Below are positions 1 to 62,933 of a stretch of DNA of 64,000 bases, in pieces. Within the stretch, counting starts at the first letter, position 1; each line of letters begins with the position of its first letter. Under the pieces are notes generated by a model that made no database searches, had not been told where the DNA came from, and was given only the letters and a program-made list of their open reading frames with translations. Where the stretch lies: the NCBI GenBank assembly GCA_016462645.1, contig JAEMSX010000007.1, positions 1-64,000 on the forward strand, given 5' to 3'. The translations under genes and the position numbers were made by a program. Source of the stretch: Thermoleophilaceae bacterium. Its GTDB lineage: Bacteria; Actinomycetota; Thermoleophilia; Solirubrobacterales; JACPNS01.

Positions 1-2060
1 AACGACTTCTGGTCGACCTTCTTGGCCTTCGGAGCGGTGCCTGCGGCCTTGCCGTACTTGATGCCGAAGAATGACTTCTGCTTGCCGGTTGCTCCCTGTG
101 CGGTGCTCTCGCCGGGCTCGGCGTAGACGCCTGCGGCGGGCGGTGCGACGGGTGCTGCCGCGGGCTGCGCGACCGCGTTCGGGTCGTATGCGGGCGCGAC
201 CGGAGCCGCGTTCGGGTCGTATGCCGGAGCCTGCGGCGCGGCCTCGTAGGCGGCCAGCTCAGGAGCTGCCTCATAGGCAGGTGCTGCCGGGACTGCGGAC
301 GGGTCGTATACGGGCTGCTGCGGCATTGCCGCGTCGTCGACGAACTGCTCGCCCTGCGGCTGCGCGGCGGCCTGCTTTTTCTTGCCGAGGCTGAACGATC
401 CGGCCTTGGCCTTCTTGGCCTTCTTCCCCTTCTTGCCCTTGGATGCGGCGGGGGCCTTGCCGCCCTTGCCGCCGTCGGCGACAACAAGTCCGCCGACAAC
501 CATGTCCTCCATCCCTGGAGGCGCGACGCTTTCCGTGCGATCGGTGTCTGGCAACTCGACGTCCCCAAAGCTTGATCCCGCGTTGTAGTCCTGGTAGAGC
601 GGCTGGTCGGCGTTCGGCGTGTTCGGGTCGTGCGGCTCGACCTCGGGCTGAATCGTCGGATCACTGCGCACGAAGACCTCGGGCTCGGACTGCTCGACGA
701 CGGCTTCGGTGTTCGAGAGCGCCATCGCCGGGTCGATCACTTCGGCCTCGTTTGAAACCGTGGCGTACGGGTTGACGATCTGCGTGGGCGTGTCCGGGTC
801 CACTTCCGGCTCTTGGGTGAAGCCCGACGCGGGGTCGATGACTTCGGCTTCGTCGGACGCAGTGGCGTACGGGTTGGCGATCTCCGCCCCGGCGAGCGGC
901 GGAGCTTCCTCGGTCGGCTGCGAGAACAGTGCCTCGCGATCGTTGAGGGCCGGAGTCGCGGGCTCGTCCGGTACTGCGGAAAGCGCGTCTGCCAGCGCCG
1001 GCATCTCGACCATCGGCGACTCGTCCTGAACTTCCTGAACGGGCTCGAAGGCAGGCTGCTCCATCTCGAAGCTCGGTTCCGGGACAGGAGGCGGCTCGGC
1101 CGCTGCAAGCGGCTCGGCGGGTGCCTGCGGCTCAAAGGTCGGCGGCTCCATTTCGAAAGCGGGCTCGGGGGCGGGCTCGAAGGCGGGCTCGGGCGCAACC
1201 ATCGGCTCGGGTGCGGCAAGCGGTTCGGCGGCCAGCGGCTCCGGTGCGGCAAGCGGCTCTGCGGGGAGCGGCTCGAACGTCGGCTCCGCGTCCGGGGCCG
1301 GCAGCGGCTCGGGCGATGCCAGCGGCTCGGGCGAGGCGAGGGGCTCGGGCGAGGCGAGCGGCTCGGGCGAAGCGAGCGGCTCCGGGGCCGCCAGTGGCTC
1401 CGGCGCGGCAAGCGGCTCTGCGGCCTGCGGCTCGAAAGCCGGCTCGGCGGCGGATTCGTCGCCCGCGATGTCGTCGATCGAGAACATGTCTCCGCCGGCA
1501 GCGGCTGCCCCGGGATCCTCAATCTCAAAGGTGTTCTCCTGCACGACTGCGTCGTCATCGAAATCGTCGATCGAGAACATGTCGCCGTTGTCGGCGGGAG
1601 CGGCGAGCGGCGGCGGCGCGGCGGCCTGCTCGAACGCAGGCTCGGGTTCAGGCTCGATGAACTCGTCCACCGAGAACATGTCTCCGCCCGCGTCGCTCTG
1701 CGGCGCCGGGATCGGATCCATCGCAAGCTCGGTCAGCGGCTGCGGTTCGGCCGGCGGGGGCAGCTCCATGTCGCTGCCGTCGCCGTAGGAAAGTCCGACG
1801 TCGGCGAGTCCCCCGGAACTGGCGTCCTGCGGAAACGATATTTCGGCGGCGTCGTTGTCGACGCCGAACATGTCGTCCGGGTACTGACCACCAACGGGCA
1901 CGTCAATGGCGGGCTCGTCAGGATTCTGCGGCCATTCGCCGGGCGTGGACGCGCCGATCGGCGCGAGTCCGGGTTCCTGCGAAAGATTTTCTGAGCTTGT
2001 TTCTTGCGTGGCGTTGACCGGGTCTTGCGGAGACTCGGGCGGAAACTGGCCGTCTGACAT
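1..2060 (-). CDS. Acidic Pro/Glu/Ala-rich repeat protein (partial, C-terminus beyond left edge)
   Basis: I read an uninterrupted minus-strand frame of 686 codons from the ATG at 2060 to the left edge with no stop. I do not recognise the family. The protein looks low-complexity and probably disordered. It is acidic over its first ~500 residues, with four copies of a DMF(S/G)(V/I)D(D/E/N) motif (bases ~1864-1880, 1660-1689, 1566-1587 and 1472-1497). It then has a run of EPLASP/EPLAAP hexapeptides, two NPYAT...EAEVIDPA repeats, a lysine-rich KGKKGKKAKK block (~base 430), and YDPN/YEAAP repeats. No signal peptide or membrane segment is visible. A sigma-28-like promoter lies just upstream. The function is unknown. 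A scaffold with short binding motifs is inference only. Long antisense open frames across this region are GC-driven shadows. Confidence 0.8.
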   Translation of the reverse strand, partial: MSDGQFPPESPQDPVNATQETSSENLSQEPGLAPIGASTPGEWPQNPDEPAIDVPVGGQYPDDMFGVDNDAAEISFPQDASSGGLADVGLSYGDGSDMELPPPAEPQPLTELAMDPIPAPQSDAGGDMFSVDEFIEPEPEPAFEQAAAPPPLAAPADNGDMFSIDDFDDDAVVQENTFEIEDPGAAAAGGDMFSIDDIAGDESAAEPAFEPQAAEPLAAPEPLAAPEPLASPEPLASPEPLASPEPLASPEPLPAPDAEPTFEPLPAEPLAAPEPLAAEPLAAPEPMVAPEPAFEPAPEPAFEMEPPTFEPQAPAEPLAAAEPPPVPEPSFEMEQPAFEPVQEVQDESPMVEMPALADALSAVPDEPATPALNDREALFSQPTEEAPPLAGAEIANPYATASDEAEVIDPASGFTQEPEVDPDTPTQIVNPYATVSNEAEVIDPAMALSNTEAVVEQSEPEVFVRSDPTIQPEVEPHDPNTPNADQPLYQDYNAGSSFGDVELPDTDRTESVAPPGMEDMVVGGLVVADGGKGGKAPAASKGKKGKKAKKAKAGSFSLGKKKQAAAQPQGEQFVDDAAMPQQPVYDPSAVPAAPAYEAAPELAAYEAAPQAPAYDPNAAPVAPAYDPNAVAQPAAAPVAPPAAGVYAEPGESTAQGATGKQKSFFGIKYGKAAGTAPKAKKVDQKS
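1303..1428 (-). repeat. Seven-unit 18-bp tandem repeat encoding (EPLA[S/A]P)n
   Basis: Units of 18 bases start at 1303, 1321, 1339, 1357, 1375, 1393 and 1411. Each encodes Glu-Pro-Leu-Ala-Ser/Ala-Pro on the minus strand. The first four units are nearly identical and the outer ones are degenerate, so the array may vary in copy number without changing the frame. Confidence 0.85.
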
Positions 2061-2092
2061 AGGTCCACCTCAACGATTGTTGTACTCGCCCT

Positions 2093-61139: not shown

Positions 61140-62933
61140 ATGAGTGTGCTTGCAAACGGAACGTTGATCGACAACCGCTACACGGTGCGTGGCCGCATCG
61201 GCTCCGGCGGCATGGCCGACGTCTACCTCTGCGACGACCAGCACCTCGGGCGCCCCGTCGCGCTGAAGGTCATGCACGAGCGGTTCGCCGCTGACCAGTC
61301 CTTCGTGACGCGCTTCGAGCGTGAGGCCCAGGCGGCTGCCGGCCTGCAGCACAAGAACGTCGTCAACGTCTTCGACCGGGGCAAGGTCGGCGAGACCTAT
61401 TACATCGCCATGGAATACCTGCCCGGGCGCACGCTCAAGGACGTCGTGAACGCGATGGGCGCGCTCGACCCCAAGCTCGCGATCCACATCACGTTGCAGA
61501 TCCTCGCCGCCGAGCGCTTCGCGCATGCCAAGGGCATCGTGCATCGCGACATCAAGCCGCAGAACGTGATGATCGACGATGAGTGGAACGTCAAGGTCAC
61601 GGACTTCGGCATCGCCCACAATCCCGTCGACGGCGACCTCACGCAGACCGGCCAGATGGTCGGCACTGCGCAGTACATCTCGCCCGAGCAGGCGCAGGGC
61701 AAGCCAGTCGCCAACACGTCAGACCTTTACTCGACCGGCGTCGTGCTGTTCGAGATGCTGACCGGCAAGGTCCCGTTCGACGGCGAGTCTTCCGTGGCGA
61801 TCGCGCTGCAGCACATCAATCAGCCGCCGCCGCGTCCGACCGCCGTGAACCCGGCCGTGCCGCCGGTGCTCGACGGAGTCGTGATGAAGGCGATGGCCAA
61901 GTCGCCGGTCGAGCGCTACGCCAACGCCGACGAGTTCTCACAGGCGCTCGAGCGCGCCCGCGACAACCTCGGCGCGCCGGCGGGCAAGACCGAGATGCGC
62001 GGAGCTGTCGCCGCCACCCCGACCGCCGCCAAGGACAACCGGAAGCGCAACTGGCTGATCGCCGGCGGAATCCTCGCCGCGTTGCTGATCGCCGCGGCCG
62101 CCTACTTCCTGCTGGTCGGCAACAAGCAGGTTGTTCCGAACGTCGTCGGCCGCGCTGCGGGCGACGCCCAGTCGCGGATCGCCGAAGCAGGCTTCAAGAG
62201 CCAGGTCTTCTCGCAGACCAACAAGGCACCGGTCGGTGAAGTGATCAGCCAGAGCCCGGCCGGCGGCAAGAAGGCGAAGAAGGGCTCGACGGTCATCCTC
62301 AACGTCAGTTCCGGTCCGGGTGAGGTCTCGATGCCGGATGTCGAAGGCCTCTCGCAGTCCGCTGCGACAAAACAGCTGGAAGCACTGGGCCTGACCGTGA
62401 AGGTCACGCAGGAGTTCGATTCCGACATCGCCAAGGGCAAGTGCACGCGCACGGTGCCGGGCGTCGGCGAGAAGGCGCAGAAGGGCAGCGAGGTTGAGCT
62501 GTACGTGAGCAAGGGCGCCAAGCAGGTCGTCGTTCCCGACGTGGTCGGCCAGGACATCGACGCCGCGACCAAGGAACTCGAGGATGCGGGCTTCGAGGTC
62601 TCGTCGGTCGAGGAGGACAGCGAGAAGCCTGAGAACGAAGTCACCAAGCAGTCGCCGTCGGCCGGGGCCAAGGCCGATGACGGCTCGAAGATCAAACTCA
62701 CTGTTGCGACCGGCCAGAACACCGTGCCGGATGTGATCGGCCTCGCGAAGTCGGACGCGGTCGGGCAACTCGAAGCAGCCGGATTCAAGGTCAAGACGAC
62801 GACCACCGACGTGACCGATGAGGCCGATGACGGCAACGTCGTATCTCAGGATCCGACCGAGGGAACGGCCGACGTCGGATCGACAGTCACGCTGGAAATC
62901 GGCAAGTTCGTGGACGACGGGACGACGCCGTAG
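61140..62933 (+). CDS. pknB: Ser/Thr protein kinase PknB with four PASTA domains
   Basis: The 597-residue protein has a kinase domain at ~14-275 (GSGGMADVYL, K43 in VALKVMHE, D137 in VHRDIKPQNVM, TDFGIAH, SPEQAQG) and a juxtamembrane segment. One helix (~306-325, IAGGILAALLIAAAAYFLLV) precedes four tandem PASTA domains (~330-590) starting VVPNVVGRAAGDAQSRI, SMPDVEGLSQSAATKQL, VVPDVVGQDIDAATKEL and TVPDVIGLAKSDAVGQL. PASTA repeats bind muropeptides or lipid II and relay envelope status. The Shine-Dalgarno AAGGA lies seven bases before the ATG. Confidence 0.96.
   Translation: MSVLANGTLIDNRYTVRGRIGSGGMADVYLCDDQHLGRPVALKVMHERFAADQSFVTRFEREAQAAAGLQHKNVVNVFDRGKVGETYYIAMEYLPGRTLKDVVNAMGALDPKLAIHITLQILAAERFAHAKGIVHRDIKPQNVMIDDEWNVKVTDFGIAHNPVDGDLTQTGQMVGTAQYISPEQAQGKPVANTSDLYSTGVVLFEMLTGKVPFDGESSVAIALQHINQPPPRPTAVNPAVPPVLDGVVMKAMAKSPVERYANADEFSQALERARDNLGAPAGKTEMRGAVAATPTAAKDNRKRNWLIAGGILAALLIAAAAYFLLVGNKQVVPNVVGRAAGDAQSRIAEAGFKSQVFSQTNKAPVGEVISQSPAGGKKAKKGSTVILNVSSGPGEVSMPDVEGLSQSAATKQLEALGLTVKVTQEFDSDIAKGKCTRTVPGVGEKAQKGSEVELYVSKGAKQVVVPDVVGQDIDAATKELEDAGFEVSSVEEDSEKPENEVTKQSPSAGAKADDGSKIKLTVATGQNTVPDVIGLAKSDAVGQLEAAGFKVKTTTTDVTDEADDGNVVSQDPTEGTADVGSTVTLEIGKFVDDGTTP

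What the first reader, a model, noticed from the sequence alone, without database searches (positions are those of the whole stretch)
1..2060. Unrecognised acidic repeat protein with a recurring DMFSxD motif
An intact frame of at least 686 codons encodes a low-complexity acidic protein carrying four spaced copies of DMF(S/G)(V/I)D(D/E/N). It also has an 18-bp EPLASP array, duplicated NPYAT...EAEVIDPA blocks and a switch to Lys-rich and YDPN repeats near the C-terminus. Regularly spaced short motifs in a disordered chain often act as docking peptides. The repeats are seen; the docking idea is inference.
Basis: partly seen in the sequence, partly recalled or inferred. Interest (0 to 1): 0.55.

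Follow-up and report, generated by a model that had tools for sequence, protein, structure and literature searches.

The report
Genus-specific disordered acidic motif protein
A small group of uncultured actinobacteria carries a very long, floppy, acidic protein in which a few short peptide motifs stay the same while the rest of the chain changes, which suggests a flexible scaffold for other proteins, although no partner is known yet.

Summary
Window 3..2060 (minus) is an open 686-codon frame with four DMF(S/G)(V/I) motifs, two NPYA..EAEVIDPA blocks, an 18-bp EPLA(S/A)P array and a switch to Lys-rich sequence. It is cut by the contig end. The missing C-terminus probably lies on contig C11 of the same MAG: 374 more codons with five further QKSFFGIKYGG repeats, then an RDD gene and purA.

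All five held genomes of the genus (Solirubrobacterales) have the orthologue. The DMF motif occurs 3-4 times in each, 18 copies in all. Over all pairs, pN/pS is 0.23 (DMF copies 1-3) and 0.26 (NPYA) against 0.60 for linkers; the closest pair alone shows no difference. Profile searches of 232 order, 399 class and 396 phylum genomes hit nothing outside the genus. AlphaFold2 gives mean pLDDT 41.6. Two orthologues end in an RDD membrane domain, one truncated; G003, G004 and the C11 tail do not.

Best reading: an intrinsically disordered, acidic, lysine-free N-terminal half with conserved docking-type motifs and a basic, repetitive C-terminal half, membrane-tethered in some species, acting as a multivalent scaffold. 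Motif conservation is shown; docking, partner and scaffold role are inferred.

The parts
3..2060 (-). acidic, disordered repeat protein, N-terminal 686 codons; 3' part cut off by the contig end
   Evidence: open frame; contig starts at window base 1; orthologues in 4 of 4 other held genomes of the genus
2065..2071 (-). Shine-Dalgarno-like GAGGTGG
   Evidence: read from the sequence
1854..1874 (-). DMF copy 1 (DMFGVDN, residues 63-69)
   Evidence: mean pair identity of residues 61-67 is 0.89
1662..1682 (-). DMF copy 2 (DMFSVDE, residues 127-133)
   Evidence: block 125-133 pair identity 0.84
1563..1583 (-). DMF copy 3 (DMFSIDD, residues 160-166)
   Evidence: pair identity 0.86
1470..1490 (-). 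DMF copy 4 (DMFSIDD, residues 191-197); no counterpart in G001 and G002
   Evidence: pair identity 0.34
1203..1434 (-). EPLA(S/A)P hexapeptide array, 18-bp period
   Evidence: Tandem Repeats Finder rows 1203-1434 and 1306-1418
828..875 (-). NPYA..EAEVIDPA block 1 (residues 396-411)
723..773 (-). NPYA..EAEVIDPAM block 2 (residues 430-446)
477..551 (-). PDTDRTESVAPPGMEDMVVGGLVVA block (residues 504-528), one copy in each orthologue, where the acidic half ends
   Evidence: pair identity 0.77
378..476 (-). Lys-rich stretch that opens the basic C-terminal half
   Evidence: translation; K counts
51..71 (-). first FFGIKYG repeat (residues 664-670); five more on contig C11
2143..6157 (-). upstream genes on the same strand: WecB-like epimerase, UDP-sugar dehydrogenase, Gfo/Idh/MocA oxidoreductase, hexapeptide-repeat protein
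   Evidence: Pfam; same order in G003, G004, G001 and G002 where the stretch was read, except that no hexapeptide gene was kept in the G003 map

Best explanation
The gene encodes a cytoplasmic, intrinsically disordered, multivalent scaffold or tether. Its acidic, lysine-free N-terminal half (about 530 residues) presents two or more kinds of conserved short linear motif (3-4 copies of D-M-F-S-hydrophobic-D-D/E, two NPYA..EAEV(I/L)DPA blocks, one SVAPPGM..LVVA block) on fast-drifting Pro/Glu/Ala linkers. The motifs would each dock weakly on a folded partner, and several copies together would gather it. The basic C-terminal half with FFGIxxG repeats would give a second contact surface (another partner, membrane, nucleic acid, or the acidic half itself). 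In two of five species the chain ends in an RDD membrane domain, so there it would be held at the membrane. Shown: the motifs, their conservation over the genus, linker turnover, charge split, low predicted order, RDD fusion in two species. Inferred: cytoplasmic location, docking, partner, scaffold role, membrane tethering.
For: Motif copies far above shuffles in 5 of 5 orthologues. DMF (3-4 copies) in 5 of 5; two NPYA-type blocks in each (G004's second block fits the alignment but not my stricter pattern). Four 7-residue DMF windows are more conserved than random placements (0.721 against 0.425, p 0.004). Synonymous changes inside the motifs, with a TCG/AGT serine switch in G004, show that the peptide is kept. 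Mean pLDDT 41.6, 620 of 686 residues under 50. Residues 1-528: 115 D/E, 3 R, 0 K. Whole-gene omega 0.21 between G000 and G003, near that of the adjacent RDD gene, 0.19. RDD domain at the end of G002 (E 3.4e-19) and G001. No hydrophobic N-terminal segment in the sequence.
Against: No binding partner, expression or localisation data. In the closest pair motif pN/pS equals linker pN/pS and omega of DMF codons (0.26) is not below the rest (0.21); synonymous divergence is also lower in the motif blocks. DMF copy 4 is absent from two orthologues. Low pLDDT may partly reflect an alignment of four sequences. FFGIKYG copies are near-identical in DNA within a genome, so they may be recent duplications. 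The charge-hydropathy rule puts the N half on the disordered side in 5 of 5, but the C half in one of five.
Confidence: 0.5

Rival explanations
1. A bulk acidic spacer or polyelectrolyte: the chain works by length and charge (spacing, crowding, ion or water binding), and the motifs are not docking sites.
For: Strong charge bias with no lysine in 528 residues, about 16 expected from seven neighbouring genes; hexapeptide array that differs between species; motif pN/pS no lower than linkers in the closest pair.
Against: Over the genus the motif blocks keep residues that bulk charge would not need (Met, Phe, hydrophobic positions): pair identity 0.84-0.89 for DMF copies 1-3 against 0.34 for the rest.
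Confidence: 0.22
2. Self-associating block polyampholyte: the acidic half and the Lys-rich FFGIxxG half attract each other and form a condensate, without any specific folded partner.
For: Net charge per residue near -0.2 in the N half and slightly positive in four of five C halves; conserved aromatic stickers in the basic half. PopZ of Caulobacter, whose acidic Pro-rich linker tunes a condensate, is a working analogy (PMC9512792, passages).
Against: The C half is only weakly basic (+0.02 to +0.06; about zero in G002). No folded oligomerisation domain was found.
Confidence: 0.15
3. Sliding-clamp binder: xxDMF is a relative of the beta-clamp-binding pentapeptide (E. coli Pol III internal motif QADMF), and the chain gathers clamps.
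For: DMF is shared with QADMF, the Pol III peptide used as a positive control in PMC13254535 (passages). dnaB lies close by.
Against: The defining Gln is absent in 18 of 18 copies, while the genus's own main DnaE carries QGSIF in 4 of 4 genomes searched. The conserved D-D/E after the motif is not part of the clamp consensus. The dnaB neighbourhood is old and occurs without this gene.
Confidence: 0.04
4. A cell-surface or exported repeat protein (as the Trypan_PARP look-alike match might suggest).
For: Acidic Pro-rich repeats are common on surfaces (general knowledge). Neighbouring genes make sugar precursors.
Against: No hydrophobic N-terminal stretch in the sequence (no signal-peptide program was run). 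The PARP match has 19.2 bits against a cut-off of 100. The RDD domain sits at the C-terminus.
Confidence: 0.07

Closest known systems
RDD family membrane proteins (PF06271), including Halobacillus andaensis RDD and B. subtilis SppI/YteJ
   Same: G002 and G001 orthologues end in a domain that scores above the Pfam cut-off; the next gene in G000, G001, G002 and G003 encodes an RDD protein.
   Different: The window protein, its C11 tail, G003 and G004 have no such match. The characterised RDD proteins are a Na+/H+ antiporter (PMC5996927, abstract) and an SppA inhibitor (PMC7568657, passages); neither source, as far as read, mentions a tail of over 1,000 residues.
PopZ (Caulobacter polar scaffold)
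   Same: Acidic, Pro-rich disordered stretch; [quoted passage not shown]
   Different: No helical oligomerisation domain found; repeated DMF and NPYA motifs; much longer. Analogy only, no sequence relation was tested or claimed.
Beta-clamp-binding motif proteins
   Same: DMF core as in QADMF.
   Different: Gln absent in 18 of 18 copies.

Membership tests
RDD family (PF06271) | RDD transmembrane domain above the Pfam cut-off | tested here: not met
   Window part: only Trypan_PARP below cut-off; C11 part: no family. Met in orthologues G002 (70 bits, cut-off 24.1) and G001 (58.6 bits, profile positions 2-101 of 137), so the gene family includes RDD fusions but this protein as found is not one.
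Beta-clamp-binding motif | Q at position 1 of the pentapeptide (QL[S/D]LF or Q-aliphatic-x-[L/M]-[F/L]) | tested here: not met
   0 of 18 motif copies have Q there (consensus from passages of PMC13254535).
Trypan_PARP (PF05887) | score over the curated cut-off | tested here: not met
   19.2 bits against 100, over the Glu/Pro-rich stretch 188-255.
PopZ-like scaffold | C-terminal oligomerising helices and an N-terminal partner-binding helix | tested here: inconclusive
   The window part is predicted unfolded and no Pfam or NCBIfam match to such a domain was found; no direct comparison with PopZ was run.
Multivalent short-linear-motif protein (functional class) | short motifs conserved in a disordered, drifting chain | tested here: met
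   pooled pN/pS 0.23-0.26 against 0.60; mean pLDDT 41.6; the closest pair alone shows no contrast.
Multivalent short-linear-motif protein (functional class) | motifs bind a folded partner | not testable with these tools
   needs binding experiments
Pup-linked 'lysine desert' protein | organism has Pup | tested here: not met
   Pup (PF05639) in 0 of 5 genomes of the genus, of which 3 count as over 90% complete; control found in Corynebacterium glutamicum.

The most novel reading that the evidence does not exclude
A genus-specific organiser: a disordered chain of 800 to 1,400 residues that arose next to an RDD gene between a sugar-precursor operon and purA, gathers one dedicated partner through three to four DMFSIDD docking sites, and is switched between membrane-bound and free forms in evolution by keeping or losing a C-terminal RDD domain.
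Probability: 0.2. Interest if true: 0.6.

Novelty: new variant of a known kind. Interest (0 to 1): 0.36.

Why it matters
Bacterial disordered scaffolds with repeated docking motifs are few, and most were found one by one in model species. Here motif conservation, linker turnover and a membrane anchor that is present, truncated or absent can be followed within one genus. The DMFSIDD peptide is short enough to use as bait, so the partner question can be tested directly. If there is no partner, the gene is still a clean example of a young, long, acidic disordered protein kept under selection.

Tried and rejected
Homologues outside the genus: the two matches outside it (G041, G023) cover only query residues 208-260 and 219-259, the EPLA array. 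I read part of the G041 stretch and it is a GC-rich tandem repeat; G023 was not looked into. The profile of the N block hit 5 of 232 order genomes, all of the genus. The profile of the NPYA-SVAPPGM block hit 4 of 399 class genomes, all of the genus (G001 is not among the rows listed), and 1 of 396 phylum genomes, the window's own. In genome contigs 45 stretches matched the peptide patterns and 3 encoded relatives.

Motif elsewhere in the genomes: a degenerate DNA pattern for D-(M/L)-F-x-hydrophobic-D-(D/E) gave 14 places in the five genomes, 13 of them in this gene and one on G000:C9, whose frame I did not check. A first pattern, too narrow in its Ser codons, gave none. For FFGIxxG a first pattern left out Tyr; the wider one gave 14 places, all in this gene or on C11.

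Pup link to the lysine-free half: rejected, Pup in 0 of 5 genomes. Clamp binding: rejected as membership. Solved structures: no match for either block. NCBIfam: nothing for the window protein, G003 or G002. G004 has a sub-cut-off match to PF18361 (23.3 bits, cut-off 25, residues 603-633), taken as chance. Origin of the fused RDD from the adjacent RDD gene by recent duplication: not supported; the two fused domains group together at 93/93, not starred, with G001 filling 49% of columns. PADLOC and PHROGs were not searched.

Literature: six searches listed nothing about this protein; only the held open-licence library was searched.

Full report
What is in the window. The finding covers one open frame, window 3..2060 on the minus strand, 686 codons from an ATG with GAGGTGG just upstream. 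The window begins at the first base of contig C120 of a metagenome-assembled genome of 2.65 Mb in 149 contigs, 82% complete, so the 3' end of the gene is cut by the assembly, not by the window. D[MIL]F[SGA][VIL] occurs 4 times against 0.0076 on average in 5000 shuffles.

The missing end. A search with the RDD protein that follows the gene in G003 found its counterpart on contig C11 of the window's own genome (71% identity). C11 opens with 374 codons in frame that carry five more QKSFFGIKYGG repeats and end in a tail like that of G003, then the RDD gene at 1185-1910, then purA on the other strand. In the window's genome the FFGIxxG pattern occurs only at these two contig ends. I found no exact overlap of 11 to 150 bases between the contig ends. 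That C120 and C11 are neighbours is therefore inferred from order and repeats; a break inside a repeat array is expected.

Orthologues. The four other held genomes of the genus have the gene: G003 883 codons, G004 934, G002 1432, and G001 split over two contigs (813 codons, then 328) with a 34-base overlap. The order of the genes is epimerase (WecB-like), UDP-sugar dehydrogenase, Gfo/Idh oxidoreductase, hexapeptide protein, this gene, RDD gene, purA (convergent), with a DnaC-like gene and dnaB beyond purA. Exceptions: G004 has no RDD gene there, and none at E 1e-10 anywhere; in my G003 map a longer opposite-strand frame took the place of the hexapeptide gene.

Outside the genus. I mapped the purA region of 20 genomes of other families in the order, 20 of the 36 others with a purA match. 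In none of the 20 maps did a kept frame have this protein as its best match. RDD genes were marked in 6 of 20, all of family f3, and the hexapeptide gene in 12 of 20. So the neighbourhood is old and this protein is an addition of the genus, as far as these maps show. Profile searches agree: 5 of 232 order genomes, 4 of 399 class genomes and 1 of 396 phylum genomes, all in the genus.

Is the motif conserved while linkers drift? The 18 DMF copies (4, 4, 4, 3, 3) are in 5 of 5 orthologues. Mean pair identity is 0.84-0.89 for copies 1-3, 0.34 for copy 4 (absent from G001 and G002) and 0.34 for the rest of residues 1-530. Random placement of four 7-residue windows reaches the observed mean in 0.4% of 20000 draws. 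Pooled over ten pairs, pN/pS is 0.23 for DMF copies 1-3 with flanks (28 codons), 0.26 for NPYA, 0.23 for the SVAPPGM block, 0.60 for linkers and 0.69 for the part after residue 530. Against this: in the closest pair (G000-G003) the values are 0.36, 0.33, 0.30 and, for linkers, 0.33, and omega is 0.26 for DMF codons, 0.20 for all motif blocks and 0.21 for the rest. In that pair synonymous divergence is also lower in the motifs, which may reflect alignment trouble in the repeats. The contrast therefore rests on the more distant pairs, where synonymous sites are near saturation and ratios are rough.

Physical character. Residues 1-528 have 115 D/E, 3 R and no K; seven neighbouring proteins have 3.1% K, so about 16 would be expected. 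The other four orthologues have 0 to 2 K in the same part. The second half holds 21-54 K, but its net charge is only slightly positive, about zero in G002. AlphaFold2 on the window part, with three relatives, gives mean pLDDT 41.6 and 620 of 686 residues under 50. The few residues at or above 50 include 63-67 and 192-198, at DMF copies 1 and 4. This is consistent with disorder; the shallow alignment weakens it.

The membrane domain. G002 ends in an RDD domain (E 3.4e-19, residues 1289-1422). G001 ends in one that fits profile positions 2-101 of 137. G003, G004 and the C11 tail have none. Whether the domain was lost in one lineage or gained in the other is not settled; the fused domains group together (93/93) apart from the adjacent RDD genes. 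RDD proteins of known function are a Na+/H+ antiporter (PMC5996927, abstract) and SppI, which inhibits the protease SppA through its C-terminal part (PMC7568657, passages), so a partner-binding tail on an RDD protein has a precedent in kind.

Mechanism. The best-supported explanation is a flexible, multivalent scaffold or tether: conserved short motifs on drifting acidic linkers, a basic repeat half, and in some species a membrane anchor. The steps shown are conservation, charge split, low predicted order and RDD fusion; location, docking and partner are inferred. A charge-based spacer or a self-associating condensate former remain open. A clamp binder is unlikely because Gln is missing in 18 of 18 copies while the genus's main DnaE has QGSIF in 4 of 4 genomes searched. 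A Pup-related lysine desert is unlikely because Pup was found in 0 of 5 genomes; the two papers behind that idea (PMC10169902, PMC10465538) were seen only in a search listing.

Novelty. No Pfam, NCBIfam or solved-structure match covers the conserved blocks, and six literature searches listed nothing about it. It is a new, genus-restricted protein family of a known general kind (disordered, motif-bearing), with an unusual architecture where fused to RDD.

Noticed in passing
L014:10224-11999 (-), L044:4472-5998 (-), L017:11913-13001 (-): The dnaB genes of G003, G001 and G002 seem to carry an intein (splice-like junctions such as CVVGETLV / CVTGDTLV and VHNS / THNS by eye); the dnaB of G004 (L015:10371-11888) shows none in the part printed.
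   Followed up: no
L044:1-987: The fused RDD domain of G001 lacks the last third of the Pfam profile (positions 102-137) although the frame ends normally.
   Followed up: partly
L027: Two RDD genes in tandem in a genome of another family (G171); the second begins like the fused RDD of G002 (PVYLLASFGQRV / PVYRLATWRQRV).
   Followed up: no
L031, L037, L038, L105 (family f3 RDD genes): RDD proteins of family f3 have their own Pro-rich N-terminal tails with PQSP/PQAP repeats and a conserved YGGPVPPGGW or YSGPVPPGGW just before the domain.
   Followed up: no
window 61140-62933 (+): A PASTA-domain Ser/Thr kinase (PknB type, four PASTA repeats); a possible modifier of a Ser-bearing motif such as DMFSIDD, untested.
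   Followed up: no
G000, G001, G002, G003, G004: Pup was not found in any of the five genomes, although many actinobacteria have it (general knowledge).
   Followed up: partly
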